Shown in pieces: positions 2,635 to 37,670 of a stretch of 42,245 nt of DNA. Both the position numbers and the translations under genes were made by a program. Each line of letters starts with the position of its first letter. Position 1 is the stretch's first letter. The stretch comes from an uncultured Eubacterium sp. (lineage in GTDB: Bacteria > Bacillota > Clostridia > Peptostreptococcales > Anaerovoracaceae), in NCBI GenBank assembly GCA_946555345.1, contig CAMNSS010000020.1, forward strand, positions 1 through 42,245, in the 5' to 3' direction. A model generated the notes under the pieces. The model did no database searches, was not told the origin of the DNA, and worked only from the letters and a program-made list of their open reading frames with translations.

Positions 2635-2734
2635 CATTTGGATATCCTCTTGCCCGTGCCACCTGAATATCATCCTGCGTATGGCATTTAGATATCTTCT
2701 GGCGCGCGGCATCTGAACATCGTCCCATCTTTAG
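2635..2734. repeat. 25-bp degenerate tandem repeat, four units
   Basis: Units start at 2635, 2660, 2685 and 2710, each beginning with CA followed by a degenerate form of TTTGGATATCCTCT. Units 1 and 3 are the closest pair. On the minus strand the units resemble the last codons of yunB just upstream (AGAAGATAT...GATGTCACGG against GATATTCAGGTGGCACGG in unit 2). This is a locus-specific array, not a known repeat family. Confidence 0.75.
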
Positions 2735-2782
2735 CTGCTAATGCTAAATAGTTCCTTATCCATGGTGTCCTAAATGTTTTCC

Positions 2783-3451
2783 CTAATCCGTGACATCTAA
2801 AATATCTTCTTTTGGAACTTCCACATAGCTATCCGGCACATCGCCCAAAATAACCGCCTCTGCAATCAAGATGGTACTGGAGGTACAAAACGTCCGGGAA
2901 GAAAAAGGGGCAAGCACTTTGATGCGGCATCCCAATTCGATATAGATCTTATATTTTGTCTGATTAATGCCCTGCGTCTCAAACTCCGTCCGAAAATCCA
3001 TGGAAGAAACGCTCATCGGCCTTATGGCAATTTCCACGTTTGGTCCCGTCTGGGAAAAAATCTTGCTTCCAAGCAGGGACCCCACCGGCACTTCATAACG
3101 ATCCTTTTCCATCTGCTGAAAAGCTTCCTGCAAATTCATGGAAAGCTGGGACATCAGGATATTGATCTCGATGGCATTCGCCTGCACCAGGTCCATCGTG
3201 CCGTCTTCTCCTTTTTGCACGGTAAAAAGGCTTTCCCGTTCCGACTCTTCCTGGAACTGCTTTGCCAGCGCTTTGTTGATCGTCCTGGAAACGATTACTT
3301 CCGCCCGCATTTTCGACACATCCTCAAGATTTGGCTCTATCAGAAGTTTTGCCACCAGGAAAAAGCTTATACAGAAAAACAGCCCGAGGACGACAAGCGT
3401 CATCAGCATTTTCCAGACAGTGTTGCGCCTGCGTGTCCTGCTCCTCCCCAT
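2783..3451 (-). CDS. yunB: Sporulation protein YunB
   Basis: Membrane-anchored protein of the YunB family, which in Bacillus subtilis is a mother-cell (sigma-E) gene needed for normal spore formation. From ATG 3451 it has 222 residues: a basic N terminus, one membrane segment (about residues 12-35, VLGLFFCISFFLVAKLL), then an exposed domain with the hallmarks VPVGSLLGSKIFSQTGP, FRTEFETQGINQTKYKIY and AEAVILGDVPDSY. The upstream TTG at 3463 is less likely because GGAGG sits 5-6 bp before the ATG. It lies alone between codY and hflX, with repeat-filled spacers on both sides. The leader has a 10-bp inverted repeat. Its presence supports an endospore-forming host. Confidence 0.88.
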   Translation of the reverse strand: MGRSRTRRRNTVWKMLMTLVVLGLFFCISFFLVAKLLIEPNLEDVSKMRAEVIVSRTINKALAKQFQEESERESLFTVQKGEDGTMDLVQANAIEINILMSQLSMNLQEAFQQMEKDRYEVPVGSLLGSKIFSQTGPNVEIAIRPMSVSSMDFRTEFETQGINQTKYKIYIELGCRIKVLAPFSSRTFCTSSTILIAEAVILGDVPDSYVEVPKEDILDVTD

Positions 3452-3472
3452 ATGCCCCTCCAAAAAACAGAA

Positions 3473-3503
3473 TTCCTGCTTTACATAATATGCAAAGCAG
3501 GAA
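3473..3503. promoter_or_regulatory. 10-bp inverted repeat in the yunB leader
   Basis: TTCCTGCTTT at 3473-3482 pairs perfectly with AAAGCAGGAA at 3494-3503 across an 11-nt loop, about 22 bp upstream of the yunB start codon. It could be an operator or an mRNA stem near the ribosome site. A sigma-E-like GCATATT lies inside it on the minus strand, but no good -10 partner was found. Confidence 0.4.
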
Positions 3504-3566
3504 CATTGTGTTCATGGTTTTGGAAACGGCACAGATGCGAAAGTTTGCCGCAGCTTACTGTAATTT

Positions 3567-3652
3567 TGCGGCAGGGCATTACATTTGGGGCATCTCGCTG
3601 CATTTCGCCGCAATCCCCTGCGCTCTGCATTTCGCCGCAGCGCACTACATTT
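3567..3652. repeat. Degenerate tandem copies of the codY 3' end
   Basis: CTGCATTTCGCCGCA occurs identically at 3598-3612 and 3625-3639. A 20-nt segment at 3633-3652 that covers the codY stop codon matches 3567-3586 at 16 of 20 positions. Read on the minus strand, a motif like AAATGTAG...CTGCGGC recurs about five times beginning at the codY stop. Spacing is uneven (about 20-30 bp). Confidence 0.7.
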
Positions 3653-4421
3653 CCATCTTTCCCAGCTCTTCCTTGAACTTAGAATTGATAATCTTAATCC
3701 GCGTTCCCTTCATGCCCAGCGAACGCGATTCGATTACCCCTGCGCTTTCCAGCTTTCGCAGGGCGTTGACGATAACAGACCTGGTAATGCCCGACCGATC
3801 CGCAATCTTGCTGGCAACCAGAAGCCCTTCCGTTCCGTCCAGCTCTGCGAAAATCTGCTGCACAGCTTCAACCTCCGAATAGGAAAGCGTGCCGATTGCC
3901 ATCTGCACCATGGCGATCTGCCGTTCTTCTTCTTCCTCTTCCACGAATTTCTTGCGCTGTATTTCCATGCCGATAATCGTTGCGCCATACTCGCCCAAAA
4001 CCAGATCCTCATCGGTAAAGAGCGGGGAATACCTGGTGAGAATCAGCGTACCCCATCTCCTGCCGCCGCCCATGATCGGAATGATCGTATGAAGCTTGTC
4101 CGAAGTATCGTAATCGTACTTAAAAATCTGCAAAGCGGCCTCTTCCGTGAGGTTTGCGGTAGTTTCTTTCACCTTCATAAATTCTTCATTGTACTCGCTT
4201 GGAAAAATCTCCGTATCCGTTTCCGCATCCGCAATGGTGGCGCTGTCCGATTTGATTTTATAGCTAACGCCGATTACTTTGCCTTTGGTGCTTGCAACAT
4301 AGACATTGGCATCCATCAGGTCGCTCAAAATCGCACACATCTCATCAAAAGAAAACGCGCCTGTAGGGCTTTCCTGAAGCAACCAGTTTAATTTTCTTAC
4401 TTTCGTTAAAATGTCACTCAT
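3645..4421 (-). CDS. codY: Global transcriptional repressor CodY
   Basis: GTP and branched-chain amino acid sensing repressor of nutrient-limitation genes in low-GC Gram-positives. It has 258 residues, the normal length. An N-terminal GAF-type ligand domain (about 1-155) starts MSDILTKVRKLNWLLQ; a C-terminal winged helix-turn-helix lies near 200-245 (ASKIADRSGITRSVIVNALR, then GMKGTRIK). The start at 4421 has GAGGTAG about 8 bp upstream. Unlike the common arrangement in one hslVU-codY transcript, a strong terminator separates hslU from codY, so codY has its own leader. That leader contains a 12-of-15 match to the CodY box, suggesting autoregulation. Confidence 0.97.
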   Translation of the reverse strand: MSDILTKVRKLNWLLQESPTGAFSFDEMCAILSDLMDANVYVASTKGKVIGVSYKIKSDSATIADAETDTEIFPSEYNEEFMKVKETTANLTEEAALQIFKYDYDTSDKLHTIIPIMGGGRRWGTLILTRYSPLFTDEDLVLGEYGATIIGMEIQRKKFVEEEEEERQIAMVQMAIGTLSYSEVEAVQQIFAELDGTEGLLVASKIADRSGITRSVIVNALRKLESAGVIESRSLGMKGTRIKIINSKFKEELGKMEM

Positions 4422-4521
4422 AAACTCTACCTCATTTGTATCATATAGATTTGAAATTTTTTACATATCATATATACACTTATTATATATTTTTTTAGCC
4501 AAGAAAACAACTACTTTTTTG

Positions 4522-4536
4522 ATTTTTCAAAAAAGT
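4522..4536. promoter_or_regulatory. Candidate CodY box upstream of codY
   Basis: ATTTTTCAAAAAAGT matches the consensus AATTTTCWGAAAATT at 12 of 15 positions, and its reverse complement also scores 12. It lies about 100 bp upstream of the codY start in an AT-rich leader that also holds likely -10-type sequences (around 4480-4495). Autorepression through such a site is known for some CodY proteins; here it is inference. Confidence 0.45.
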
Positions 4537-4860
4537 TCATTATTCACACACAATTCGCATATCACCGCACACAAACATGACACATTCCCGCTTGCATCAC
4601 GCTTGCTTTTTTGCATCACAAACAACAAGCGCTTGGGCGGTTTCGCCTGCCGCTCTTTCATCGATAATAAAGATGAGACGCCTTATGCCAAAGGCAGCTA
4701 CGGACAATGCCTTGCGTTCGCATCTTATGAACTGCGCCCTGCGTTCGCACCTTCTGCCGTGCAATGCGCCTCTATGCCGTGGCCGGCCAGGACGTTCCGG
4801 TTGCCGCCAGCCCATGCCCGGCCGTCCCCTTAACAATACCAGATACCAGCCTCATAGGAT
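4537..4860. other. Non-coding upstream part of codY spacer
   Basis: No gene is supported. It contains a 27-bp direct repeat: TGCGTTCGCA-type segments at about 4713 and 4740 (TTGCGTTCGCATCTT and CTGCGTTCGCACCTT, two C/T differences). Open frames here cross GC-rich repeats and lack ribosome sites. Confidence 0.5.
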
Positions 4861-4861
4861 T

Positions 4862-4918
4862 CAAGCAAAAAGCCCCATAAATTTCCGCTTCTGGCAGCGG
4901 AGATTTATGGGGCTTGCT
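4862..4918 (-). terminator. Intrinsic terminator after hslU
   Basis: A long near-perfect hairpin (AGCCCCATAAATTTCCGCT against AGCGGAGATTTATGGGGCT) spans this site, loop TCTGGC region. On the minus strand it is followed by TTTTTGC. It lies about 75 bp past the hslU stop and closes the topA-hslV-hslU transcript before codY. Confidence 0.9.
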
Positions 4919-4926
4919 TTGTTGGC

Positions 4927-4995
4927 TATGTCCGGCATCTGAACAGTTATGTCCGGCAATCGCTACAAGCGACAACTGTCACGCCCGGCAATTAC
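4927..4995. repeat. Short degenerate repeat at the hslU 3' end
   Basis: The core CCGGCA occurs at 4932, 4953 and 4985 in longer similar contexts (TATGTCCGGCA twice). The third copy abuts the hslU stop codon. On the minus strand the series reads ATTGCCGGGCGTGAC, ATTGCCGGACATAAC, ATGCCGGACATAGCC. The array sits between the stop and the terminator. Confidence 0.55.
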
Positions 4996-6428: not shown

Positions 6429-6438
6429 GTCATGCCTC

Positions 6439-10028: not shown

Positions 10029-10394
10029 TCCTCTCATTTCACGCAGGCACAAAGCACAATGAGAATGTTTGCGGCATATCCCTTTCCGTTCGGCTTCCTG
10101 CGTTTTTGCGCAGGCACAAACTATAATAAGAACGCTTGCTTTGCATATCATCCGTTTTCATATCGTCCCTTGCGGGCATACCTGCGCCATCCCAACGCCC
10201 CATCATCACAAACAGCCGTTTTGCTCCGCAACTGCATTTGCATCAAGCGAGAACGCCTTGTGCGCTTTGGGTTCCAGCATCAAACGAGTGCGCTTGATGC
10301 CGTCCCGTCCCGATCACTGGATAAATGCGTTTTTGCCATCAAGATCCCCCCGCTATCAAATTGCCCGGGCTGCCTGCTGCCTAACCGCCCCATA
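10029..10394. other. comM-dprA spacer
   Basis: No gene is supported in this unusually long gap for the pair. It contains a degenerate direct repeat, CGCAGGCACAAA at about 10041 and 10111, each followed by similar 28-bp sequence ending GCATATC. Another pair reads GCGCACTCGTTTGATGC and GCGTTCTCGCTTGATGC on the minus strand. No terminator was identified. Confidence 0.5.
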
Positions 10395-11924: not shown

Positions 11925-12007
11925 TTCATGTTCTCCAATCCCTCATCTTCCCCCTAAAACCCTGTTATCATAATCCGTTTCATATTTTAAAACGGGCTTT
12001 TACGCAT

Positions 12008-12087
12008 CCGCCATATGCGCAGAATGCCCAAAGCAGCTATCCTGGCGCTTCTGCCATTTCTTCCTGTCTGCCATATGCCCAAAATGC
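12008..12087. repeat. 60-bp-offset direct repeat downstream of yraN
   Basis: CCGCCATATGCGCAGAATGC at 12008-12027 and CTGCCATATGCCCAAAATGC at 12068-12087 match at 17 of 20 positions. The second copy lies just 3' of the yraN stop codon. A weaker similarity to the yraN coding end (GGCATATAGAATGCG on the minus strand) was noted. Confidence 0.6.
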
Positions 12088-12089
12088 AT

Positions 12090-12428: not shown

Positions 12429-12532
12429 TCCAGCCTCCAGCCCTGCTTTTCGAGCATTTATTTTCCAATGTTTTAAACGTCCTGTTTTCTAGTATGCATC
12501 GTCGGTTTCAATTTCTATATATTTACATTTTT

Positions 12533-12561
12533 ATAGTAATATGGTTTTTATTGGTTGTCAA
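12533..12561 (-). promoter_or_regulatory. Sigma-A promoter for yraN
   Basis: On the minus strand TTGACA (12561-12556) is followed after 17 bp by TACTAT (12538-12533). Transcription would start about 100 bp upstream of the yraN TTG. This is the best-looking housekeeping promoter in the window. Confidence 0.65.
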
Positions 12562-12819
12562 GATATTTTTCCTATATTTTCAATAATATTCCTTTTTACA
12601 TGACCCGTGCACTAACACAAAGCAAAGAACGAAAAACTGTCCGCCTCTGGGCTCTTTTCCCTTCACGCACCGTGTTTTCCAAGGCAAAGCAAACAGGCTA
12701 ATCGGAAAGAACCACCATAAGAATAAATGGGAAAGGCTGATCCAAATACCACGAGCTTGAAGCGGCACGGAAAGCAATGATCAAATGCAAAAGAATACGG
12801 AATGGCAATAAACCGCTAG

Positions 12820-12900
12820 AATAAAGCCGGCTTCGCCGATCCTTTTTCAGCGGCGGACTTTATTGTATTTCGTCATATCGCTTACAGCGATATTTCCTGC
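12820..12900. repeat. Dispersed palindromic element, copy 1
   Basis: Outer arms AATAAAG (12820) and CTTTATT (12858) enclose the small hairpin CGGCTTCGCCG (12828-12838) and the string TCCTTTTTCA. It is followed by a perfect 8-bp stem ATATCGCT-TAC-AGCGATAT (12875-12893) and TTTCCTGC. The same modules, CGGCTTCGCCG plus TCCTTTTTCA and an ATATCG...TATTTCCTGC hairpin, recur at 37436-37670. A weaker relative may lie at 26640-26680. Confidence 0.6.
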
Positions 12901-12903
12901 GTG

Positions 12904-12960
12904 ATAAAAAAACAAACCATGTATAAATGAAACAAACAGTTCCATATGATACATGGTTTT
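12904..12960 (-). terminator. Terminator-like hairpin downstream of cof
   Basis: AAACCATGTAT (12914-12924) pairs exactly with ATACATGGTTT (12949-12959). On the minus strand the stem is followed by GTTTTTTTATC, a good T tract. The 24-nt loop is long. It would end the transcript of the MBL, restriction remnant and cof genes. Confidence 0.5.
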
Positions 12961-13104
12961 AAGCGCCAAGTTCCGTGCTTTTGGCCATTCCGCCCCCCCC
13001 CGGCCGCTTTTTTCCGGGATCGCTTCCTAGCTGTTTCTTCTTCATCCAGCTCTCATTCGGCCAGCTTCACCGATTCATTATCCGCCCTTCTGCGCTACAA
13101 GTTC

Positions 13105-13196
13105 CACCCGCCATAACGTTCAACTTATGCCATAATGATTTCATCTGCCATAATATTTCACCTGCGCCCAAACAGTGTCACCCACTATGGCGTTCA
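13105..13196. repeat. Tandem degenerate copies of the cof 3' end
   Basis: CACCCACTATGGCGTTCA (13179-13196) includes the cof stop codon. CACCCGCCATAACGTTCA (13105-13122) matches it at 14 of 18 positions, all four differences being transitions. Two more related units lie between them (TATGCCATAATGATTTCA and TCTGCCATAATATTTCA), giving about four units spaced roughly 18-38 bp. Confidence 0.75.
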
Positions 13197-14029
13197 GCCC
13201 CTTCCCCTTTCAACACGAATTTTTCCACTGCATCCGCCACGCCATCCGCATCATTAGGCGGCGCAATGTATTTTGCCACAGCCTTCACCTCGTCGACGGC
13301 ATTTCCAACCGCCACCGGAAAACCGCAGGCCCGCAGCATCGCAATATCGTTCGGGCTGTCCCCTGCAGCCATCATCTCGCTGCTATCAATCCCAAGAAGC
13401 CTTCCCATCTGGCGCAATGCTTCCGCCTTGCTGGTCGTCGCCCCGCCGATTTCCAGGTTATGCGGAAAAGAGCTGGTGATCGTCGCCTCTGGTATGGTGA
13501 GGAGTTTTTCACGCATCGCCGGCTTTTCGCTGATATCCTCAAAATTGATATTGATGTTCTCTACACTGCCTTTATGATCCAGCATGAATTGATAGATATC
13601 GTCCACGGGATTGCGCGTCGTTAAAATGTATTCCACATCGCGAAAGCTCTTCCCGCTCCGCTCCACCTGGCGATAATATTCACCGTCGATATAAGCAATG
13701 CCCTTGACGAAGCATTCGATAATATAAGGATATTGTTTCAAAAGCGCCACGGAATGTTCTGTCGCCAAAGGAGACAGGCAGTTTTCATAAAAGGTCTTAT
13801 TTTCTGCAAGATCCGTAATCGATGCGCCGTTTGAAGTCAGCACATAGCGGATTGCCTCTATTTCAAATACATCCGCCGGAAGGGCGGAAAACGGCCTTCC
13901 CGTTGCGATCACGATATTGACCCCCTGCTCCGCCGCCTTTTGCAAAGCCGCCCGGTTTCGTCTGCTTATTTCCCTGTTATTGTTGATGGTTGTCCCGTCA
14001 AGATCCAGTGCGATTAATTTGATCGTCAT
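13178..14029 (-). CDS. Cof-type HAD-IIB family hydrolase
   Basis: Haloacid dehalogenase-type phosphatase of the Cof subfamily; substrates in this group are usually sugar phosphates or nucleotides and cannot be fixed from sequence. From ATG 14029 (GGGGAG about 7 bp upstream) it has 283 residues. HAD motif I is LIALDLDGTTI (Asp nucleophile near 9-11), motif II ATGRPFSAL, the cap domain occupies about 85-190, motif III lysine is in TTSKAEAL and motif IV is GDSPNDIAML. Its ATG overlaps the TGA of the truncated restriction gene (ATGA), so translation may be coupled. Confidence 0.93.
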   Translation of the reverse strand: MTIKLIALDLDGTTINNNREISRRNRAALQKAAEQGVNIVIATGRPFSALPADVFEIEAIRYVLTSNGASITDLAENKTFYENCLSPLATEHSVALLKQYPYIIECFVKGIAYIDGEYYRQVERSGKSFRDVEYILTTRNPVDDIYQFMLDHKGSVENININFEDISEKPAMREKLLTIPEATITSSFPHNLEIGGATTSKAEALRQMGRLLGIDSSEMMAAGDSPNDIAMLRACGFPVAVGNAVDEVKAVAKYIAPPNDADGVADAVEKFVLKGEGAERHSG

Positions 14030-15012
14030 ATTTTTCTCCCCGCTCTCCTGTCTTCTGTAAAGCACAATCTTTTCCTTGTATCCGCCATACGAATTACCAT
14101 ATTGACCACATTACGAGGAGTAAAAAATTGACCTTGCGCACCTTTTAATGACGGGCCAATAAAAATCTCAAATGCCTCACCAACAGCATCCCGCGAGCTA
14201 TCTTTAAGACTATATAATTGTAATTCACCTACAATATATTTAAGGCATTTAGCGTCAATAATTATAGTATCCGCAACATCTATCACATCATTATATTGTT
14301 TCTTGACTCGCTCAAAAATCCCTAAGATCCTCGTGCTTACATCCTCATCTTTTTCATTTATCCCCGCCCTAAACTTCACAGTATCATCCGGACGAGTAAA
14401 ACGTTCGTCATAGATTTTGCAAAATATAAGATTAATAATCTGTGATGCGAACACCTCATCACGCGTTATCCCAACTGCATTTGCCGCCAAATAATTTCTT
14501 ATTGTTTTAAACGTTGGTTTAAGATTCTCTGCTGGCCGCAAATCTTTTCGTTTGAATTTTCCAATATCTTCAACTCTTTCACCAAAGCATGGAATATTAG
14601 GAATTTCTTCAAACAAAATCTTGCCATCCTTCTCAATCTTCTGCAAATAAAGCCTTTCTTCACCATTAAACCAAACCCCTAAATATGCCTTAGAAAAACG
14701 TAGATAATCCTCTAATTGGCTTCTTCCATCTTTTCTATTCTTTTTCTTGCATTCAACAATAATATAAGCTGTATCTTCCGTATGCTCTGGACTTGTAAAA
14801 ACAGCAATATCAACAGGATATTCCTTTTTCGTATCTGAAGGGCGGATTTTTACCCTGTATTGAGGCCGAATATGCACATACTCTTTCGGATATCCATAAT
14901 CATCTACTAAAATTTTTGTAAAAGGCTGAACCGCTTCAATTTCTTCGGGCGTTTCTTTTACCTGCAGGCCAGAAATATAATCAATTATATAACCTTCCCT
15001 AATATCTTCCAT
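14026..15012 (-). pseudogene. Truncated restriction-modification protein: HsdR_N nuclease domain plus start of an N6-adenine methylase
   Basis: The 328-residue product starts with an HsdR_N-like PD-(D/E)XK domain: PVDIAVF with Asp68, then IIVECKKK with Glu87 and Lys89, so the nuclease motif looks intact. A helical linker follows and then the opening of a type I-like methylase (EIFIGPSLKGAQGQFFTPRN, about 284-303). The frame stops near residue 309, before the SAM-binding and NPPY motifs, and ends in about 19 residues that are cof leader read in another frame. The gene is visibly more AT-rich than its neighbours, suggesting transfer. It is probably the stump of a fused restriction enzyme cut by deletion. 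Whether the N-terminal nuclease half still acts is unknown. The start has GGGG about 10 bp upstream. Confidence 0.8.
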
Positions 15013-15108: not shown

Positions 15109-15705
15109 TTACTTTCCTTCCACGATATCCAGAAACTCCCTGTTAATCTGGCGCACCTTTTTCATCGTGCATCCATCCGCATGGCCCGGATAAATCGTAA
15201 TATCGTTGCCCCATTGATTCACCTTATTTAAAATGCTATCCCGCATTTCCGCAGGCGAGCCGCCCTCAAAGTCGGTCCTGCCCAAATCGACATCAAACAC
15301 GGTATCGCCCGTAAAGCATACCTTGCTCACCTCGCTCAAAAAGCACACGCTGCCCTTCGTATGGCCCGGCGTGCTGACCACAGTAACCGGCTCTCCTTCA
15401 AGGTCGATCACATCGCCATCCGCCAAGTACACGTCCACCGGCTTTTTATACGGATCGCAATCGCCCGTATGTAGGTACACCGGGCAACCAAACACTAATT
15501 TAATCCGCTCCACTGCGCCCACATGGTCGTAATGATGGTGGGTCAGCAAAATCCCGCGCAGGTTAAGCCCGTGCGCCTTGACGTATTCGATAAATACCTT
15601 CGGATTGTATCCCGGGTCAATAATATAGCAATCGCCCCCATCTTGATGGTAAATCACATATCCGTTGCTTTCCAGCATACCGCCGATAAATCTCTTTATT
15701 TTCAT
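15109..15705 (-). CDS. MBL-fold metallohydrolase (glyoxalase II-like)
   Basis: Metallo-beta-lactamase fold hydrolase of the hydroxyacylglutathione hydrolase-like group, 198 residues, cytoplasmic. Metal ligands are visible: THHHYDHVG (the HxHxDH motif, residues about 55-63), STPGHTKGSVCF, FTGDTVFDVDLGRTDFEGG and the final IYPGHADGCTM. Proteins of this size in Clostridia act on thioesters or are of unknown substrate. The start has GAGGTG about 7 bp upstream. It is 96 bp before the restriction remnant, and may share its transcript. Confidence 0.92.
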   Translation of the reverse strand: MKIKRFIGGMLESNGYVIYHQDGGDCYIIDPGYNPKVFIEYVKAHGLNLRGILLTHHHYDHVGAVERIKLVFGCPVYLHTGDCDPYKKPVDVYLADGDVIDLEGEPVTVVSTPGHTKGSVCFLSEVSKVCFTGDTVFDVDLGRTDFEGGSPAEMRDSILNKVNQWGNDITIYPGHADGCTMKKVRQINREFLDIVEGK

Positions 15706-16116
15706 AAAGCACCTCTTTCCTATCTTCGTTTCAATCCAATCGGTTTATCCTGGGCCAGTCGGCCTGTCTTGGCTCTATCTAACCGATTCATTCTGAGCCA
15801 GCCTGCTCCATCCGTCGTTCCCTATTCAGCCCGTCTTGACCGTTTCCGGTCTTTCCCTAGCAAGTTTGCCTGTCCCTGATCAAACTGTTTCTATCCAGGC
15901 TGGCTCTATTTGGCCTTTCCCTATCCAGCCCGCTTCTTCCCCGCCTGGCCATCTTTACCCGGCCGCCCGTCCGGCTTCGTCCAGTTCGACCGTTTCCGGC
16001 CTTTCCCTAACCAGTTTGCCGCCGCCCGGTCTTCCCGCCGCTCCCCAGCCGGGCCGCCCCTGTCCTGTCTCTATCCGCCCCTGCCTAAGCAATATTTTAA
16101 TCTATTTTGTGGCTTC
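15706..16116. repeat. Pyrimidine-rich spacer with 150-bp-offset degenerate repeats
   Basis: No gene is supported between the divergent MBL and trkA genes. The top strand is rich in C and T. A 33-bp segment at 15838-15870 (GACCGTTTCCGG start) recurs at 15988-16020 with three differences. Shorter relatives of TTCCCTATCCAGCCCG occur near 15817 and 15916. A long frame through this part continues into trkA but has no ribosome site or protein-like composition. Confidence 0.65.
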
Positions 16117-16145
16117 TTGCAATTATATGTTGAATATCCAATAAT
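16117..16145 (+). promoter_or_regulatory. Candidate trkA operon promoter
   Basis: TTGCAA at 16117-16122 and AATAAT at 16140-16145 are separated by 17 bp, giving a leader of about 58 nt before trkA. Confidence 0.4.
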
Positions 16146-16174
16146 TAGTGGTAAAATTAATGTGTTTGGATATT
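16133..16174. promoter_or_regulatory. 9-bp inverted repeat over the trkA promoter
   Basis: AATATCCAA (16133-16141) and TTGGATATT (16166-16174) are exact reverse complements 24 bp apart. The left arm overlaps the candidate -10 and the right arm lies just past the start site, a plausible operator pair. Confidence 0.4.
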
Positions 16175-20538: not shown

Positions 20539-20787
20539 TTTCCCCTTGCTTCGGGAATCCTATTAAGCAAAGAACAGGATCTTTGCGAAGGAAAAGCCAT
20601 AGGGAAGTCCCGCAAGGAAGTTTTTATGCATGGGAACGGTTAAGGCTGGGTGCGTGAACGGTCGCTGAACGAGACCGCGTCGCGCAAAACGGCTTCCGCT
20701 GAAAAATGTTTTCAACAGAGAGCCGACCGGCGCGAAACAAGAATGCCTTCAAAAAAGATCCCCGCAAACCACGAGGTTAAGGAGAGC
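20539..20787. other. trkH-CBS spacer
   Basis: No gene or clear terminator. The sequence is open in the CBS frame back to 20650, but without a good ribosome site. A small stem CGGTC...GACCG occurs near 20658-20676. A c-di-AMP riboswitch, which can precede K+ transport genes, was looked for and not recognised. Confidence 0.4.
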
Positions 20788-24032: not shown

Positions 24033-24078
24033 CTCTTTTCTCCTCTCTTGTTTTCTTTTTTATTATTTGTAGTTTCTG

Positions 24079-24122
24079 ATAAAATATTGCAAAAGACCAG
24101 TGTCAATTTTTTGCAATATTTT
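24079..24122 (-). promoter_or_regulatory. Lipoprotein promoter overlapped by a 14-bp palindrome
   Basis: A perfect TTGACA (minus strand, 24106-24101) is followed after 16 bp by TTTTAT (24084-24079). AAAATATTGCAAAA (24081-24094) and TTTTGCAATATTTT (24109-24122) are exact reverse complements, flanking the -35 and covering the -10. That placement is typical of a repressor operator. Confidence 0.55.
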
Positions 24123-24138
24123 TGAAACGGAGTTGTAA

Positions 24139-24189
24139 ATGAAAAAGAGTTATTTAGAGAAAATTGCCCTTGCTTTTCTCCCATTTTAA
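24139..24189 (+). CDS. Possible 16-codon peptide, divergent from the lipoprotein
   Basis: ATG at 24139 has CGGAG seven bases upstream and opens a frame reading MKKSYLEKIALAFLPF and TAA. It begins 17 bp past the shared palindrome. It could be a leader peptide, or chance. No homologue is recognised. Confidence 0.25.
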   Translation: MKKSYLEKIALAFLPF

Positions 24190-24365
24190 AAGAAATCAAC
24201 TAAAACGAAAGAAAACGACCCGTTTTTACGGCAAAAGATGCATCGCTTGCCCTATTTCTCTCTATTTTTCCCTCAAAAAACGATTTTTCAAAATATCCAG
24301 GGAATCGATGCTGAAAAATTGATTCAGGAAGGCGAATCGCTAAGCGCCAGCGGAAACCATAAATC

Positions 24366-24393
24366 AAAATCCGGGGCGGTTGCCCCGGATTTT
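24366..24393 (-). terminator. Intrinsic terminator of hppA (distal hairpin)
   Basis: AAAATCCGGGGC (24366-24377), loop GGTT, GCCCCGGATTTT (24382-24393): a perfect 12-bp stem followed on the minus strand by TTTTGATTTA. Confidence 0.85.
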
Positions 24394-24403
24394 ACCTGCA
24401 ATC

Positions 24404-24432
24404 TAATGCGGCATGAAAACCATGCCGCATTA
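24404..24432 (-). terminator. Second hairpin after hppA (proximal)
   Basis: TAATGCGGCATG (24404-24415) and CATGCCGCATTA (24421-24432) form a perfect 12-bp stem with a 5-nt loop, 10 bp before the main terminator in transcript order. It lacks a T tract and may protect the 3' end. Confidence 0.6.
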
Positions 24433-24465
24433 TCCATACGCTTATTAAAATGCATTGCGAAATGC

Positions 24466-24527
24466 TTGGAAGCTGATCAAGCCGCCAATGCTTGCAAGCA
24501 TTAGAAGCTAATCAAACCGCCGATGCT
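24466..24527. repeat. Tandem duplication of the hppA 3' end
   Basis: The last 27 bp of hppA including its stop codon (24501-24527) recur at 24466-24492, 35 bp further downstream, with 23 of 27 identities. The four differences are all A/G transitions. The stop codon TAA has become CAA in the copy. This is the clearest case of a pattern seen at several genes here. Confidence 0.88.
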
Positions 24528-26519
24528 TACGAACAATGGTGCGAATACCAGTGATACGATCGTCATCAGCTTAATCAGGATGTTAATGGACGGACCGGAA
24601 GTATCCTTGAACGGATCGCCTACCGTATCGCCTACAACGGCAGCCTTATGAGGGTCCGAACCCTTGCCGCCGAAATGTCCTTCTTCGATGTACTTCTTCG
24701 CATTATCCCATGCACCGCCTGCATTTGCCATCATCAGAGCCAGCAATACGCCCGATGAAAGCGCGCCGGCCAGAAGTCCGCCCAGAGCCTCAACGCCCAG
24801 CAAAATGCCAACTGCCAGCGGAGCAACGATTGCCATTAATCCCGGAATTACCATTTCCTTCAGTGCAGCCTTCGTGGAAATATCAACGCAATTTGCGTAG
24901 TCAGGCTTGGAAGTTCCTTCCATGATGCCCTTGTCTTCCCTGAACTGTCTTCTTACTTCTTCAATCATCTGGTTCGCAGCCCTTCCAACGGAATTCATCG
25001 TCATGGCTGAGAACAGGAACGGAAGCATAGCGCCGATAAACAATCCGATAATAACGATCGGATCAAGCAGATCCATCGCGCTGATCTGAGCAACCTCTGC
25101 AAAGGATACAAACAGAGCCAATGCGGTCAGCGCCGCAGAACCGATTGCAAAGCCTTTGCCGATCGCCGCAGTCGTGTTTCCTACGGAATCCAGCTTGTCG
25201 GTAATCTCTCGCACGGAATCAGGCAGTTCAGACATTTCTGCGATACCACCCGCATTATCGGACACCGGACCATATGCATCAACTGCAACTGTCATTCCCG
25301 TCGTGGACAACATACCGACAGCAGCCAAAGCGATGCCGTATACGCCAGCAGCATAATAAGCGGCGAAGATACCTACTGCGATGCAGAGGATCGGCCATAA
25401 TGTTGACATCATGCCAACGCCCAGGCCACTGATAATCGTCGTTGCAGAACCAGTCTGCGACTGTTCCGCAATCTTCTTAACGGATTTATAATCGCCCGAA
25501 GTATAGATTTCCGTAATCTTACCAATCGCAATGCCGACGATCAGGCCTGCGATAATGGCAATCGCATAACGGAAGCTGCCCAGCATATAATAGGACAATA
25601 CTAATGTAGCGATTACTACGATAATACCTGCTATATAAGTACCCATATTCAAAGCGCTGGCAGGATTCGATCCTTCCTTGCCTCTTACCATGAAGATCCC
25701 GATCAGCGAAGCGATGATGCCGATTGCTGAAAGGACCAATGGGAACAGCGCCGCAGTCGTTTCATTAAACATGCCGCCTGAATTAACAGCGGCAACAGAC
25801 GCCAAAGTAACAGCGGAAATAATCGAGCCTACATAAGATTCAAACAAGTCAGAACCCATACCAGCAATGTCGCCTACGTTATCGCCTACGTTATCTGCGA
25901 TAACAGCAGGATTTCTCGGATCGTCTTCCGGAATACCAGCTTCTACCTTGCCAACCAAATCAGCGCCAACATCGGCAGCCTTCGTATAGATACCGCCGCC
26001 TACCCTTCCAAAGAGCGCCATGGAAGAAGCGCCAAGGCCAAAGCCTGTAACGCATTCCATCACGGTAGCCAAATCCAGAGCGCAAAGGATTACGCCAAGC
26101 CCCAGAAGGCCGAGGCCCGTTACAGCAAGACCCATGACAGCGCCTGAACGGAATGCCACTTTCAGGGCCAGGTTCATGCCAGATTCTTTTGCTGCACATG
26201 CAGTCCTTACGTTGCCAAGCGTAGCAACCTTCATGCCGAAAAATCCAGCTAACACGGATAACAATGCGCCGCATACATAAAGCACGCCTGTGATTGGCTT
26301 AATGAAGATTGCAATCAGTGCGAACAGTACAACGATCACGATGATCATGATTTTGTACTCTCTTGAAAGAAATGCCATAGCACCTTCCCTTATGTACCCT
26401 GCAATTTCTTTCATTCTGTCAGTGCCCTCGTCAGCCTTCCCAATCCAGGAAGCTAAGCCGATCGCTACTGCCAGGCCAATTATTGCCGCTATAACGGCAA
26501 GAATTGCTAAAACATTCAT
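24501..26519 (-). CDS. hppA: Membrane-bound, K+-dependent pyrophosphatase, probably Na+-pumping
   Basis: Integral-membrane ion pump that couples PPi hydrolysis to cation export. It has 672 residues with about 16 hydrophobic helices. Catalytic loops are present: [34 protein letters not shown] and [26 protein letters not shown] has Ala where K+-independent enzymes have Lys, so K+ dependence is expected. In helix 6, [11 protein letters not shown] has Glu at the position of Na+-pumping enzymes and Gly where plant H+-pumps have Glu, so Na+ transport is likely (knowledge of the family; not proven here). The start has GGGAGG about 10 bp upstream. It is flanked by a structured leader and by a double terminator. 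Confidence 0.95.
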
Positions 26520-26554
26520 TTTAAAAATACCTCCCTCTCATGCCGCACAAGCAG

Positions 26555-26609
26555 ATTTGACATGATAAGAGGCGTCAGTGACACCTCTTAATTTACTCAT
26601 TTGACATGA
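26555..26609 (-). promoter_or_regulatory. Hairpin flanked by direct repeats in the hppA leader
   Basis: TAAGAGG (26566) and CCTCTTA (26584) with inner GTCA/TGAC form an 11-bp stem with one mismatch. The 11-mer ATTTGACATGA occurs on both sides (26555-26565 and 26599-26609). It lies 45-90 bp upstream of the hppA start. There is no T tract, so it is more likely a binding site or leader structure than a terminator. Confidence 0.4.
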
Positions 26610-26639
26610 AATATTAAATTAATTTGATTAATGAAAAGC

Positions 26640-26986
26640 TTGCCCGCTGAATTCTTTTCAACGGCGAACTTTTTTAAACTCCTTTATGCTGTCCCGCATT
26701 TCCACGGGAAACCTGCGGCCAACTGCCAGCAGCCCGCATACGCACGGGACATCCACCGCTAGCCATCACAACCGGCCATCAAGACAATTACCGAAGCATT
26801 CCGCATATTCACAAAGCATTCCCAGCCGCCAATCACGCTGTCCCGGATGTCCATAGGGCATTTCCAGAAACTGCCAGGCCAGCCATCGCACATCCTGCTC
26901 GTTAATAATTATTACACCGCTACGCTACGAACGCTTTTATTGCCAACGATGCAGGCATTTCCTTCTGTAGTTGTACGGTGTTAAGC
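26640..26986. repeat. hppA-secG spacer with 149-bp-offset repeat
   Basis: No gene is supported. GCTGTCCCGCATTTCCA (26688) and GCTGTCCCGGATGTCCA (26837) begin two diverged copies of about 45 bp, both ending near AACTGCCAG. The first includes TTTCC-ACG-GGAAA, a motif also found near 34.77, 34.84 and, imperfectly, 36.95 kb. The left end weakly resembles the dispersed palindromic element. Confidence 0.55.
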
Positions 26987-27217
26987 CTACTCCAACGCCA
27001 CCAAAACAAGCGATAATACGATAAACAATACTGCTGATACCGTTGAAATCCTGCTCAAAATCGCATCATACCCTTGGCTCTTTTTCTTGCCAAAAAGCTG
27101 TTCTGCTCCGCCTCCGATCGAACCGGATAATCCTGCGCTATTGCTGGATTGAAGCAGAATACTGATGATCAGGATAACGCTTGCGAACGCAAGCACTATT
27201 TTAAGAGCAATACTCAT
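26987..27217 (-). CDS. secG: Preprotein translocase subunit SecG
   Basis: Small membrane subunit of the Sec translocon, 76 residues. Two hydrophobic helices (about 4-24 and 55-75) flank the conserved loop LLQSSNSAGLSGSIGGGAEQLFGKKK. The start has AAGGAGG eight bases upstream. In many Firmicutes secG stands just before rnr; here hppA and the lipoprotein gene lie between them. Confidence 0.95.
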   Translation of the reverse strand: MSIALKIVLAFASVILIISILLQSSNSAGLSGSIGGGAEQLFGKKKSQGYDAILSRISTVSAVLFIVLSLVLVALE

Positions 27218-27608
27218 TTCTATTCCTCCTTATACTCTAACTTCTCAAGTTTATCACAGCGTTTGTCAAAAATCAACAAATTTGATTTCCTAAATTGCGC
27301 ATTTTTGCGTACTTTTATGCGGCAACAGTTTAGCCAAGGCAAGCTGCTATCGATCTGCTAGGGTATTTCCGCAAAACCACCTTGTGAGCCATCATCGGCG
27401 TGCCAAGCCAAAGGCTTGTCAAAATGCTTTTCATCCGATGCGGCTCGCACACACCCGGACAGCGCCCATCCTGGACGGCGCATCACACACCTGAACGGCG
27501 CGCCTGCTTCTGCGTGGCCGTTTCAAAATACTTTTCACCCGCCGTTCGGGACTTGCCTGCCGCACATTCGTTCAAAACGCCCCCACAACGCTCCGGCCTT
27601 CCCTCAGT
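27218..27608. repeat. eno-secG spacer with degenerate repeats
   Basis: No gene is supported. TCAAAATGCTTTTCATCCG (27419-27437) and TCAAAATACTTTTCACCCG (27523-27541) match at 17 of 19, both differences transitions. Between them a smaller repeat built on CACACACC and GGACGGCGC recurs. No terminator was found for eno. Confidence 0.6.
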
Positions 27609-29053
<1,445 letters not shown>

Positions 29054-29127
29054 TCCTCCCAGAACCAGTTGAGAAGCGGCTGTCCCTTAGAATCAATTCT
29101 TTTCCTAAAAGACCAGTTCAAAAAACT

Positions 29128-29877
29128 TTAAAAATCAATGATTTCCATGAAATCTTCCGCTTTCAGGCTTGCGCCGCCCACCAGCGCACCGTCGATTTCA
29201 TCCATATTCATGATTTCCGTAGCGTTCGCCGGTTTGACGCTGCCGCCATACTGGATGATGACCTCATCAGCAGTATCCTCATCGTACATCGCAATCAGCG
29301 TGCTTCTGATAAAGGCGCACATTTCCTCCGCCTGTTCTGGCGTTGCGGTCCGTCCCGTCCCGATCGCCCAGATCGGTTCATATGCAATCACCAGCTTTTT
29401 CACGCATTCCGCATCGATGCCGCCAAGGTCTGCCGCAAGCTGTTCTTTCACGATGTCAAACGCCTTGCCCGCATCCCGCTGTTCAAGGCTTTCCCCCACG
29501 CACAGGATTGGCCGGATGCTTCCCGCAAAAAGCTTTTTCAACTTCTTGTTTACCGTCTCGTCGGTTTCCGCAAAATACTGCCGCCGCTCCGAATGCCCGA
29601 CGATGCAAAAGTCTACGCCGATTTCCTCCAGCATAGCGGCGGAAATTTCCCCGGTGTAAGCGCCTTCCTCTGCAAAATGCACGTTTTGCGCGCCCACCTT
29701 GACGCCCGTTCCCCGGAAGGCTTCCACCAGCGCTTCCAGATTGGTAAAAGGCGCGCAGATTGCCGCCTGCACGTCCGTTCCCTTGTAAAGGACTTTCAAT
29801 TCCTCTGCAAAAGCCAGCGCCTCGGCTTTCGTCTTAAACATCTTCCAGTTGCCTGCGATCAATGGTATCCTCATCAT
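29128..29877 (-). CDS. tpiA: Triosephosphate isomerase
   Basis: Interconverts dihydroxyacetone phosphate and glyceraldehyde 3-phosphate. It has 249 residues forming a TIM barrel: GNWKMFKT (active-site Asn and Lys), the catalytic His in [11 protein letters not shown], the catalytic Glu and flexible loop in [18 protein letters not shown], and GGSVKPAN with [10 protein letters not shown] for phosphate binding. Its start overlaps the pgk stop (ATGA), giving tight coupling; a second ATG follows directly. Confidence 0.98.
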
Positions 29878-31058: not shown

Positions 31059-31139
31059 TTCAACAAAACCCTTCCTTTTTTAATAATCGACAGCCGGACA
31101 TATGCCGACTGCCTGAAATTATTTTTCCTTATTTATGTA

Positions 31140-32156: not shown

Positions 32157-32220
32157 TTTGATTTCCTCCTCAAAATACATTGATACTTTATTGTTAATTA
32201 TCTATAACCTTTTCAGGTTA

Positions 32221-32287
32221 ATAACGCTTTTAATAATATTTTTGAATCATTCCCTTAATGGCGCTTTCTGATAACGCCTTTTAATAA
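32221..32287. repeat. Short tandem copies of the rpoN 3' end
   Basis: On the minus strand the last bases of rpoN, GGCGTTATTAA with stop TAA, are followed at once by AAGGCGTTATCAG, then GCGCCATTAAGG, and about 50 bp on by AGCGTTATTAACC. On the plus strand ATAACGC-TTTTAATAA (32221) and ATAACGCCTTTTAATAA (32271) match apart from one inserted base. Confidence 0.6.
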
Positions 32288-33741: not shown

Positions 33742-34196
33742 CGAAAACACCTCGAAACTGCGTGATAAGCTAGGGGGTTAGGGGATGCAGCTGTACGGCG
33801 GCTTAAAAACCTGATACCCCAGCCGTGCGGCATTCTTTCTGCGCCGCATTCGAAAAACCTGCGCCTTAAAGACCTGCGGCAGGTTTTGCCGATGCGGCGG
33901 ATTTTGCTAAAACGTCTGCTTCCCTGCGGCAGCGCCGTATTAAATCCCTGCGTTCATTCTAACGAGCAACGCCCCGCCTCAACGGGCAGAATCGCAAACG
34001 CGAGTTTCAATGAACGCTTCCTTGCGGCAGCGCCGCATTAAATCCTTGCGTTCATTATAACATACCTTACGCCAGTACAGGGAAAATTTTTACTGCGAAG
34101 TTCTTCTCTATTTGCCTTGTTCCCGGCCTTCTGATCCCTCGCCACTGCCTTTCTTCCGCCCTTTCACCGTCCCTTCCCTGCCGCCCGGCTTCCGGC
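33742..34196. repeat. trmL-rpoN spacer with a 45-bp direct repeat
   Basis: No gene is supported. A 45-bp sequence at 33919-33963 recurs at 34017-34061 with 41 identities, three of four differences being C/T transitions. Both contain GCGGCAGCGCCG and GCGTTCATT; an inverted AATGAACGC lies between them (34010-34018). The left part has a further series built on CCTGCGGC. Confidence 0.75.
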
Positions 34197-34667: not shown

Positions 34668-35160
34668 TTTCATCCTCCTTTGGGTTTGCGATTTGTGTTT
34701 TGCGCGTTATCCTTGACGGCAATTCCGATGGTACATCCTGATTTGCTGATAATTCTATTGTACGATTTCCTGCGGGAAAGTCAATATCTGGAACGCATAT
34801 GACGGCGTGATTTTGGTCATCGAAACAGAGTGATTTCCCACGGGGAAACCAACACCTGGAACACCACAAAAGTGCAGCAAAAACTGGAAAGAATGAATAA
34901 AAAACGGAAAGAAACGCCCCGAAATGAAAATGGAAAGCCGCAAGGCGCCCTCACATCACAAAGCCCCGCACTGCGCTTTCCCTCTCATGCACCTCTGGCC
35001 TGCCCAATCAGCCGGCTCCGCCCGCCACGCTTTTCCCAATCAGATTGCAGATGGGCATTTCCCAAAGCGCAACATACGTTTTGACAGCCAAGCCGCCCTC
35101 TGGCTTCACCCAGCTACAGCCTCATCCCGCCGCTGCCTTTGCCAGAATCACAAAAAAAGG
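34668..35160. repeat. trmL-hom spacer with 68-bp-offset repeat
   Basis: No gene is supported. A 34-bp sequence at 34764-34797 (GATTTCCTGCGGGAAA start) recurs at 34832-34865 (GATTTCCCACGGGGAAA start) with 25 identities; eight of nine differences are transitions. Each copy contains an inverted repeat TTTCC...GGAAA. A shorter pair on CCCAATCAG lies near 35005 and 35036. Confidence 0.65.
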
Positions 35161-35189
35161 AAGACAAACCCCAAACTTTATTATATAAT
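35161..35189 (+). promoter_or_regulatory. Candidate hom promoter
   Basis: AAGACA (35161-35166) and a perfect TATAAT (35184-35189) are 17 bp apart, in a strongly AT-rich stretch about 50 bp upstream of hom. No T-box or other leader structure was recognised. Confidence 0.45.
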
Positions 35190-35237
35190 AATATGTATTA
35201 TTGATTTATAACATTTGATTTACTACGGAGGTTGCCA

Positions 35238-36212: not shown

Positions 36213-36240
36213 TCACGTTTGAAAGACAGGAGGAAGACAG

Positions 36241-36738
36241 ATGACATTATATGAAGAATGGAAAGACCTGATCGGCAATCAGACAGAGGAGACTTTCCAA
36301 GAATTTTGGGAAGAATACAGCGGAGCGGAAACGAAGCTTTACAGCGCGATTTTGGATGAGCCTGCGAAAAAAATCACGGGAACGCTGGGAGAGCTCGCCA
36401 AGGAACACGAAATACGCCCTGTCATTTACATGGGATTTCTGGACGGCATCAACGACAGCCTGAAAAAAGGCAACGATTTCGAGAATTTCGATGAAAGCTC
36501 GCAGGTTGAAATCGAGATCGAGCCGGAGACGCTGTTTTACAATATGCTGGCGGCGGATGCGGAATACCTCTACGGGCTGCCGCAGTGGGAAGGCATCTTA
36601 GGCATCGATAAAATGAAGGAAATCGTCAAAGCGTACAAGAAATCAAAGACAGTGGTAAAAGGCAAGAAAATCGGCAGGAACGAGCCATGCCCTTGCGGCA
36701 GCGGCAAAAAATACAAGCACTGCTGCGGGCGGAATTAG
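36241..36738 (+). CDS. SEC-C motif protein of unknown function
   Basis: Cytoplasmic protein of 165 residues. The first 140 are mainly helical and acidic with no recognised fold; the C terminus is a SEC-C zinc motif, [17 protein letters not shown], like the tail of SecA and many accessory proteins. The start has AGGAGG about 5 bp upstream. It shares a transcript with hom and ends before a good terminator. Function cannot be assigned. Confidence 0.88.
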
Positions 36739-36849
36739 GCGCCGGGCTAGTGATCCGGATTAATATACCGGACCAATACGCCAAGACAGTGTACGAGCCT
36801 GTACGAATCTCGAAGGAAGCAAACAGGCAGTTGACTGGAATAGCCTTAC
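36739..36849. repeat. 13-bp and 10-bp degenerate repeats after the SEC-C gene
   Basis: CCGGATTAATA (36755-36765) and CCGGACCAATA (36768-36778) are 13 bp apart with two T/C differences; the SEC-C 3' end (GGGCGGAATTAGG) is a possible first unit. GTACGAGCCT and GTACGAATCT follow near 36791-36811. Confidence 0.45.
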
Positions 36850-36897
36850 AAACTCTGTATAAACGAGCATTTTTATCTCATTTATACAGAGTTTTTT
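36850..36897 (+). terminator. Intrinsic terminator of hom and SEC-C genes
   Basis: AAACTCTGTATAAA (36850-36863) pairs perfectly with TTTATACAGAGTTT (36881-36894), followed by TTTTTT in total. The 17-nt loop is long but the 14-bp stem and T tract are convincing. Confidence 0.85.
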
Positions 36898-37435
36898 GAT
36901 TGCAACCCCATTGGCCCAAGCCGTTTAAATGACAAACAGCCCCGCTTGGCGATTTCGCAAGGGAAACCAGCAAATAAATTTCAAATTTTCTCATTACACA
37001 GCAAACAAATACATGGACTGCCTGCTGATTTCCCGCACAACACCCATGAAGCCCCATGAACGCTGTATTTTCCAAGAAAAAATAGCAAAATATACAGAAT
37101 TTGAAGGTTTTGCACCATATGCTAGGCCCGTCCGCATATTGGGCTTGCCGCACATTGAACCTGACCGCATACCAGACTTGACTGTACATTAGACTTGCCG
37201 CCCCGCACCCTCCGGCAATTTTCGACAATTTCGATAATCTTAAAGGTATTGTAAGAAAATATCAAAAATTATGTGATACAATAGAGCCGTATGGGACTGG
37301 CAGAAAAAGAGCGCCGTGTTTTTTCCATGCGCTCTAGGGAAGAATAAAAAAGTGCGCAAGGCGGAAGCAAAGATTCCTTTGCACATATATCGCCCACTTT
37401 GCGGCGGCGCTTTGCAAAGCGCTTTCTTTGAAACA
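36898..37435. other. Non-coding spacer, left part
   Basis: No gene is supported; short frames here have no ribosome sites. At 37132-37197 a 16-17-bp unit is repeated about four times (CCGCATATTGGGCTTG, CCGCACATTGAACCTGA, CCGCATACCAGACTTGA, CTGTACATTAGACTTG). AGAGCGC...GCGCTCT (37308-37335) is a further inverted repeat. GATTTCGCAAGGGAAACC (36951) resembles the repeats near 34.8 kb. Confidence 0.55.
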
Positions 37436-37670
37436 TAAGAAATATCGAAATCGGTATTTCTTACGCTATAGCAAAATCGGCTTCGCCGTTCCTTTTTCAA
37501 CAGCAAACTTTGTTGATATTCCCTGAGTATTCACTGAATACTCAGGACAAGCCCCGGGTTTCACTGGATACTCAGGACAAGCCCCGAGTTTCACTGGATA
37601 CCCAGGACAAGCCCCGAATTTCACTGGATACCCGAGACAAGCAGGAAATATCGAAATCGGTATTTCCTGC
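37436..37670. repeat. Dispersed palindromic element, copy 2, split by a tandem array
   Basis: Two hairpins share the core ATATCGAAATCGGTAT: TAAGAAATA/TATTTCTTA (37436-37463) and GCAGGAAATA/TATTTCCTGC (37641-37670). Stem changes are compensated (A-T in one, G-C in the other). Between them lie CGGCTTCGCCG (37478-37488), CCTTTTTCA and four 30-bp units. The modules match those at 12820-12900. Confidence 0.65.
37531..37650. repeat. 30-bp tandem repeat, about four units
   Basis: Units of exactly 30 bp start at 37531, 37561, 37591 and 37621 with TCACTGGATAC and continue CTCAGGACAAGCCCCG with few differences; the last unit decays at its end. There are no spacers, so this is not CRISPR. The perfect palindrome GAGTATTCA-C-TGAATACTC covers the left edge (37525-37543). 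Confidence 0.85.

What the first reader, a model, noticed from the sequence alone, without database searches (positions are those of the whole stretch)
2635..37650. Most intergenic spacers carry their own degenerate tandem repeat
Direct repeats were found by eye in the spacers at about 2.6, 3.6, 4.7, 4.95, 10.1, 12.0, 13.1, 15.9, 23.5, 24.5, 26.75, 27.45, 28.95, 32.25, 33.95, 34.8, 36.76, 37.15 and 37.55 kb. Unit length ranges from about 13 to 150 bp and the sequence differs at each locus, so this is not one mobile family. It looks like repeated local duplication followed by decay. A genome-wide habit of spacer duplication, possibly from replication slippage or faulty repair, would be unusual in Clostridia.
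Basis: seen in the sequence. Interest (0 to 1): 0.8.

Follow-up and report, generated by a model that had tools for sequence, protein, structure and literature searches.

The report
Gene spacers swollen by decaying duplications
In this bacterium the DNA between genes has grown to several times its length in sister species, apparently in good part because short neighbouring stretches were copied in tandem and then mutated, which is unusual because bacteria normally keep such spacers short.

Summary
In 442 kb of this 2.85 Mb genome (nearest named kin by RpoN: Candidatus Allocopromorpha), 82 of 228 spacers carry a direct repeat stronger than all 100 local-block shuffles, against 25/353 in 13 other genus genomes and 3/87 in 7 genomes of the order. 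For spacers of 250 bp or more: 68/134 against 16/102. Mirror repeats: 4/228. Copies differ mainly by transitions (599:397; shuffled about 203:436), so they are diverged true duplicates. Sister genomes have much shorter orthologous spacers (210 bp against 22-25; 366 against 43 or less; 165 against 16-24), while short operon gaps show no such growth. One duplication copies the end of a pyrophosphatase gene, stop codon included, into the spacer. My reading: lineage-specific spacer growth by local tandem duplication and decay. The molecular cause is unproven: MutS, RecJ, PolA and XseA are present; no SbcC or SbcD was found, but SbcD is also missing in sisters with few repeats.

The parts
2573..2782 (.). 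Spacer between the YunB and HflX genes with a 50-bp-lag direct repeat (2635-2675 / 2685-2725, 78% identical); 210 bp here, 22-25 bp in G009, G022, G023
3594..3653 (.). Short direct repeats before the CodY gene (3594-3612 / 3621-3639, 89%; best local lag 20, ends 3633/3653)
   Evidence: local p 0.002
4713..4762 (.). 27-bp-lag direct repeat; spacer 4383-4991 is 609 bp here, 224-280 bp in the three sisters
   Evidence: (p 0.008); start read from the sequence
10029..10394 (.). Spacer with a gapped 69-bp-lag direct repeat (ends 10080/10149); 366 bp here, 43 bp or less in the three sisters
12007..12087 (.). 60-bp-lag direct repeat (12007-12027 / 12067-12087, 86%); spacer 11925-12089 is 165 bp here, 16-24 bp in the three sisters
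12818..12911 (+). Family A element without middle module (a + c' hairpins)
13128..13165 (.). 17-bp tandem repeat x2.2
15836..16081 (.). 150-bp-lag direct repeat (15836-15931 / 15986-16081, 67% over 96 bp); spacer 15679-16161 is 483 bp here, 125-166 bp in the three sisters
24461..24530 (-). 35-bp tandem duplication across the stop codon of the H+ pyrophosphatase gene: 24496-24530 holds the coding tail (like that of four relatives read), 24461-24495 the decayed spacer copy
26732..26891 (.). 146-bp-lag direct repeat; spacer 26520-26986 is 467 bp here, median 128 bp (max 190) in 49 relatives
27413..27541 (.). 104-bp-lag direct repeat (25-bp arms, 80%); spacer 27197-27608 is 412 bp here, median 133 bp in 40 relatives (1 longer)
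28911..29127 (.). Spacer between the enolase and triosephosphate isomerase genes with several degenerate units of about 28-33 bp (unit length read by eye); 217 bp here, median 26 bp in 50 relatives (2 longer)
33918..34061 (.). Two copies of the family C hairpin (33918-33963 / 34016-34061, 91%, lag 98); spacer 33742-34196 is 455 bp here, 119 bp in G009, median 91 in 47 relatives (4 longer)
34668..35237 (.). Spacer with a 68-bp-lag direct repeat near 34.8 kb (ends 34796/34864); 570 bp here, 237 bp in G009, median 163 in 37 relatives (1 longer)
37000..37300 (.). Tested segment with a degenerate 17-bp-lag tandem repeat (ends 37182/37199)
   Evidence: p 0.002
37336..37440 (+). Family B hairpin element
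37439..37690 (+). Family A element c-a-b(4)-c, the middle hairpin multiplied
   Evidence: 37465-37675 folds at z -5.3 against shuffles
37521..37641 (+). Four tandem b modules (30-31 bp hairpin units)

Best explanation
Shown: the repeats exceed chance; the two copies are true duplicates (transition-rich differences); most best pairs abut or overlap; the same spacers are short in sisters; at least one copy was made from the end of a gene. Inferred: the insertions are nearly neutral and survive where no operon or gene is broken; inside genes mostly in-frame repeats survive. Inferred as molecular step: strand slippage or misaligned re-annealing during replication or repair, fed by older degenerate repeats, with loss of the usual balance between duplication and deletion. 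A second layer, BOX-like hairpin elements (family A) with a variable number of middle hairpins, sits in the same spacers and may be multiplied by the same process.
For: Excess of direct repeats over dinucleotide and local-block shuffles without mirror excess: 80/228 and 82/228 against 4/228. Rare in sisters: 25/353 spacers in 13 genomes; spacers >=250 bp 68/134 against 16/102, Fisher p 1.4e-8. Transitions:transversions 599:397 in the repeats, 184-222: 414-452 in three block-shuffled sets; over gapped alignments 1255:969 with 0.50 expected from composition. 54 of 82 best pairs abut or overlap; identity 0.62 to 0.91 (5-95%), as expected for repeated input over time. Orthologous spacers many times shorter in G009, G022, G023 and shorter at five spacers in the RpoN-linked loci, while short operon gaps do not show the growth. 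Duplication across a stop codon; 19/411 spacer-flank comparisons show a direct copy against 4/411 reverse-complement. TRF rows inside genes are mostly of period divisible by 3 (22/28 rows).
Against: Only 11.2% of spacer bases lie in detectable repeats, so duplication as source of most extra DNA is an extrapolation. TRF rows in spacers also show some excess of periods divisible by 3 (17/33, p 0.04), so a few may be missed or dead coding sequence; rows can describe one array twice, so both counts are rough. Repeat DNA is 48.8% GC while spacers of 8 of 9 sister genomes are 35-42%, so the seeds were not simply AT-rich spacer. One relative has a longer spacer at 23985-24500 (643 against 516) and the gaps at 31059 and 32181 are only mildly longer here. 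No repair gene tested explains it. No strain comparison shows ongoing change.
Confidence: 0.78

Rival explanations
1. Chance or base-composition artefact of long, locally biased spacers.
For: Autocorrelation with distance is reproduced by shuffling in 20-bp blocks; 3 of the 19 named sites are not significant.
Against: Self-alignment scores beat all block shuffles in 82/228 spacers; mirror control 4/228; transition-rich differences; genus spacers of equal length show far fewer.
Confidence: 0.02
2. Most repeats are dispersed mobile hairpin families (BOX/REP-like), multiplied and decayed beyond recognition.
For: Families A, B and C sit in the spacers; 31/228 spacers share an element with another sampled spacer, no hits for one shuffled set; the strongest window array is the middle hairpin of family A; 46 family A model matches in this genome, 0-5 in 30 others of the genus. 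Only 15.5% of the genome was compared, so more families may exist.
Against: 66 of 197 spacers without a family partner carry significant repeats; significant inverted repeats are not more common than in sisters (25/228 against 38/226 over nine genomes).
Confidence: 0.15
3. The repeats are regulatory arrays (protein-binding or RNA-structure sites) kept by selection.
For: One array repeats TATAAT-like boxes about every 26 bp (L116 7863-8076, read by eye); family A middle hairpins keep pairing through changes on both sides in 6 of 11 pairs.
Against: Most spacers share no element with another (197/228); three sisters have the same neighbours with far shorter spacers; copies decay in a transition-rich way. 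The a + c' structure has little covariation support (3 of 20 pairs; covariation term +0.29).
Confidence: 0.05
4. Spacers are dead genes whose internal repeats were in-frame protein repeats.
For: 17/33 TRF rows in spacers have a period divisible by 3 (p 0.04); one window 'spacer' array (40158-40329) is in an ORF.
Against: At several window spacers the sister genomes have the same neighbours and no room for a gene between (for example 22, 43 and 16 bp in G009); the one extra gene here (14026-15012) is separate. Spacer translations were not searched against proteins.
Confidence: 0.05
5. Loss of the SbcCD hairpin nuclease caused the repeat growth.
For: No SbcD match and no SbcC-like match (best 30.7 bits, in a 1185-aa frame that I take to be SMC; genus members that have one reach 124-151 bits) in this genome, which is 96% complete.
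Against: SbcD is also missing in G022 and G023, which have few repeats, and present in G046. Eight of the 18 other genus genomes searched also lack a strong SbcC match (some are incomplete). Permissive at most.
Confidence: 0.07

Closest known systems
Ehrlichia ruminantium noncoding tandem-repeat expansion (PMC10710844, two passages seen; the primary papers it cites, Collins 2005 and Frutos 2006, not seen)
   Same: Low coding density from long spacers, with tandem repeats in noncoding DNA as the place of size change.
   Different: There about 64% coding and an active process of expansion and contraction; here a clostridial genome, 79% coding in the sample, units mostly different at each spacer and mostly decayed, strain variation not tested.
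BOX elements of Streptococcus pneumoniae and S. suis (PMC3049150, passages seen)
   Same: Family A: conserved outer hairpin modules around 0-4 tandem middle hairpins, in spacers, many copies in one genome and few in relatives.
   Different: Another class of bacteria; homology to streptococcal BOX not compared; no terminal inverted repeat, target duplication or transposase shown here.
Variation of the 16S-23S rRNA spacer in Clostridium difficile (PMC3090617, listing and start of abstract seen)
   Same: Spacer length variation in a clostridium; the listing shows that the paper uses the terms slipped-strand and direct repeats.
   Different: One locus type; here a large share of spacers over the sampled genome.
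REPIN elements (PMC3116915) and intergenic TAACTGA direct repeats of Beggiatoaceae (PMC4679880); listings and starts of abstracts seen
   Same: Repeated sequences in bacterial spacers.
   Different: Those are recurring sequences; the main effect here is local, with different units at most spacers. A REPIN transposase was not sought.

Membership tests
Ehrlichia-type expansion of noncoding tandem repeats | Tandem repeats in spacers that are not one sequence family | tested here: met
Ehrlichia-type expansion of noncoding tandem repeats | Spacers longer than in relatives | tested here: met
   (window spacers only)
Ehrlichia-type expansion of noncoding tandem repeats | Copy number varies between strains (active process) | not tested
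   no second strain of this species was compared
BOX-like element (family A only) | boxA-boxB(n)-boxC layout with variable number of tandem middle modules | tested here: met
   read by eye: copies with 0, 1, 2 and 4 middle modules
BOX-like element (family A only) | Stem-loop forming modules | tested here: met
   (z -5.3); on 15 of 18 located b units: 80.6% of cells paired, 6 of 11 pairs with changes on both sides, covariation score reached by 0/500 shuffles, but number of pair types no higher than shuffled (13 against 13.1); module a + c' has weak covariation
BOX-like element (family A only) | Many dispersed copies in one genome | tested here: met
BOX-like element (family A only) | Terminal inverted repeats and target-site duplication | tested here: inconclusive
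   flanks read by eye, none obvious; no empty site compared
BOX-like element (family A only) | Sequence homology to streptococcal BOX | not tested
   streptococcal BOX letters were not compared; the only Rfam match in the window at gathering score is a tRNA

The most novel reading that the evidence does not exclude
One bacterial lineage has changed its indel balance over the whole chromosome, from the usual deletion bias to tandem-duplication bias, so that junk-like spacers grow as in some eukaryotes; its replication or repair machinery would reveal what normally keeps bacterial spacers short.
Probability: 0.3. Interest if true: 0.85.

Novelty: new variant of a known kind. Interest (0 to 1): 0.62.

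Why it matters
Bacteria are thought to keep spacers short by deletion bias and selection (general knowledge). A genome that differs from close sisters by widespread spacer duplication, with copies from about 95% down to about 62% identity, makes the question of what sets bacterial spacer length testable, by comparing replication and repair genes and strain-level indels with those of its sisters.

Tried and rejected
Autocorrelation by lag looked like a smooth excess out to about 90 bp but was reproduced by 20-bp block shuffles; dropped. A first self-alignment with soft gap costs gave long chained alignments; gap costs were raised before the counts used here. Repair genes: MutS, RecJ, PolA and XseA are present over their cut-offs; no SbcC or SbcD found, but absence does not track the trait. 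MutL, RecA and others were not searched. Rfam on the window gave only a partial tRNA; a permissive search of 36700-37720 gave two matches far below their gathering scores (mir-1641, ncS025), taken as chance. Literature: in the listed results I saw no report of this in Clostridia other than two C. difficile rRNA spacer papers, nor in Allocopromorpha; most lists were short parts of what matched and the library holds open papers only.
Full report
What was tested. The window is a whole 42,245-bp contig (G000:C20) of a 2,845,458-bp assembly in 36 contigs, 96% complete. Its first-listed RpoN match among named genomes is Candidatus Allocopromorpha excrementigallinarum at 76%, a value shared with two MAGs without genus names; Anaerovorax matches at 63-71%. 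I added 400 kb of the same genome, on contigs known from family A hits, called genes with a hexamer model of my own, and kept spacers of 60 bp or more; spacers touching a fragment end were dropped. That gave 228 spacers in 442 kb, coding density 0.793, median spacer 297 bp.

Is it more than chance? For each spacer I took the best gapped direct self-alignment with lag 8-200 and compared it with 200 dinucleotide shuffles: 80/228 reach p<=0.01. The same test on mirror repeats gives 4/228; inverted repeats give 25/228, against 38/226 in nine sister genomes. With shuffling only within 16-bp blocks (lag 20-200, 100 shuffles) 82/228 beat all shuffles. The 13 other genus genomes sampled give 25/353 and 7 genomes of the order, of much lower GC, 3/87. 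By length: under 150 bp 3/42 against 6/175; 150-250 bp 11/52 against 3/76; 250-400 bp 27/57 against 8/50; 400-700 bp 24/45 against 3/29; 700 bp or more 17/32 against 5/23. G019 is a useful control: its called spacers are long (median 535 bp, coding 0.726) yet 3/33 pass. G046 gave 5/14 in its first two stretches and 6/50 with five more; G008 gave 1/14 and then 0/20 on a rerun with one more stretch and fresh shuffles.

Are they real duplicates? In ungapped blocks of the 82 significant spacers there are 599 transitions to 397 transversions, against 222:452, 204:443 and 184:414 in three block-shuffled sets, 215:337 in 82 own spacers with p>0.2, and 81:122 in the 25 significant spacers of relatives. 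In 54 of 82 best pairs the copies abut or overlap, in 10 they lie more than 50 bp apart, and 59 contain an indel; identity runs from 0.62 to 0.91 (5-95%). Lags of the 156 pairs spread from 14 to 250 (my limit), densest at 30-44 bp, with no single period (no formal test). TRF gives 33 rows in spacers, periods 12-104.

Have the spacers grown? Against G009 (best GAPDH match, 92% identical), G022 and G023, lengths extrapolated from tblastn ends are: 2573-2782, 210 against 22/25/25; 3410-3644, 235 against 177/154 (none for G023); 4383-4991, 609 against 280/224/237; 10029-10394, 366 against 43/-37/-3; 11925-12089, 165 against 16/24/19; 12429-13177, 749 against 356/143/165; 15679-16161, 483 against 125/166/166; in G009 also 33742-34196, 455 against 119, and 34668-35237, 570 against 237. 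Short gaps: 10 against 10/10/11; 42 against 52/36/36; 59 against 58/54/54; 10 against 16/40/40; 14 against 23/16/14; in G009 28 against 44, 81 against 37, 100 against 32. Two values (20539-20742, 23522-23732) rest on partial gene matches and are set aside, as is the first gene pair in G009. In the RpoN-linked loci (80 fetched; n is the number that could be measured): 26520-26986, 467 against median 128 (n 49, none longer); 27197-27608, 412 against 133 (n 40, 1 longer); 28911-29127, 217 against 26 (n 50, 2 longer); 33742-34196, 455 against 91 (n 47, 4 longer); 34668-35237, 570 against 163 (n 37, 1 longer); 31059-31139, 81 against 38 (n 66, 22 longer); 32181-32280, 100 against 51 (n 71, 14 longer); 29863-29873, 11 against 23 (n 67); 36213-36240, 28 against 34 (n 56); other pairs had four values or fewer, among them 23985-24500, 516 against 643 in one relative.

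Where do the copies come from? At 24461-24530 a 35-bp tandem duplication spans the stop codon of the H+ pyrophosphatase gene. The inner copy is the coding tail; the four relatives read (L023, L024, L026, L031) end near there and, by eye, show no second copy in the 60 bases read; the outer copy has lost the stop codon. Across the sample 19 of 411 spacer-flank comparisons show a direct copy of gene-end sequence, against 4 of 411 for the reverse complement; in four sisters 2 of 222 direct and 3 of 222 reverse-complement. Inside genes TRF gives 28 rows (some describe the same array), 22 with a period divisible by 3; four of the six others lie at gene ends. This fits duplication acting also in genes, with selection removing frame-breaking copies, but spacer rows too show 17/33.

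What else is there? All-against-all comparison links 31 of 228 spacers, with no hits for one shuffled set. Family A has an outer module a, zero to four middle hairpins b, and an end hairpin c or c' (modules assigned by eye). A covariance model of a + c' finds 46 matches in this genome, 5 in G009, 2 in G023, 1 each in G003, G022 and G044, and none in 25 other genus genomes; among 118 genomes of the order only this one and G064 match (stricter filters). Structure: for a + c' 3 of 20 pairs show changes on both sides and the covariation term is unfavourable; for 15 of 18 located b units 6 of 11 pairs do, with the covariation score above all 500 shuffles but no more pair types than shuffled. The array 37521-37641 is four b modules. 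This is the layout of pneumococcal BOX elements (PMC3049150, passages). Family C makes the 33.95-kb repeat, family B lies at 37336-37440. Families do not carry the main effect: 66 of 197 spacers without a partner have significant repeats.

Cause. Slippage or misaligned re-annealing is the ordinary route to such duplications (general knowledge). MutS, RecJ, PolA and XseA are present. No SbcC or SbcD was found, but SbcD is also missing from G022 and G023 and present in G046. So none of the repair genes tested explains it.

Known parallels and limits. Ehrlichia ruminantium has low coding density with active expansion and contraction at noncoding tandem repeats (PMC10710844, passages). 15.5% of the genome was examined; gene calls are mine; the relatives are unnamed and many are fragmented, which can hide repeats; no second strain was compared.

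Noticed in passing
window 40158-40329: 84-bp (28-codon) repeat inside the ORF 40089-41051, a C39-like peptidase by Pfam: an in-frame repeat.
   Followed up: partly
L116:7863-8076: Several degenerate units of about 26 bp, many with a TATAAT-like box, read by eye (own genome, C2).
   Followed up: no
window 14026-15012: A protein with a restriction-enzyme N-terminal domain (HSDR_N_2, weak N6_Mtase) with no match between the same neighbours in the G009, G022 and G023 stretches.
   Followed up: no
window 26630-26690: By eye, a possible decayed family A outer module; not among the BLAST or covariance-model matches.
   Followed up: no
window 36850-36897: Terminator-like palindrome with arms like AAACTCTGTATAAA; similar palindromes in spacers of L111 and L115.
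   Followed up: no
G019 (L186-L190): A genus member with very long called spacers (median 535 bp, coding 0.726) but 3/33 with repeats; real or a gene-calling fault.
   Followed up: no
G000 as a whole: At 2.85 Mb the assembly is larger than all 30 other genus genomes listed (1.1-2.3 Mb), many of them incomplete.
   Followed up: no
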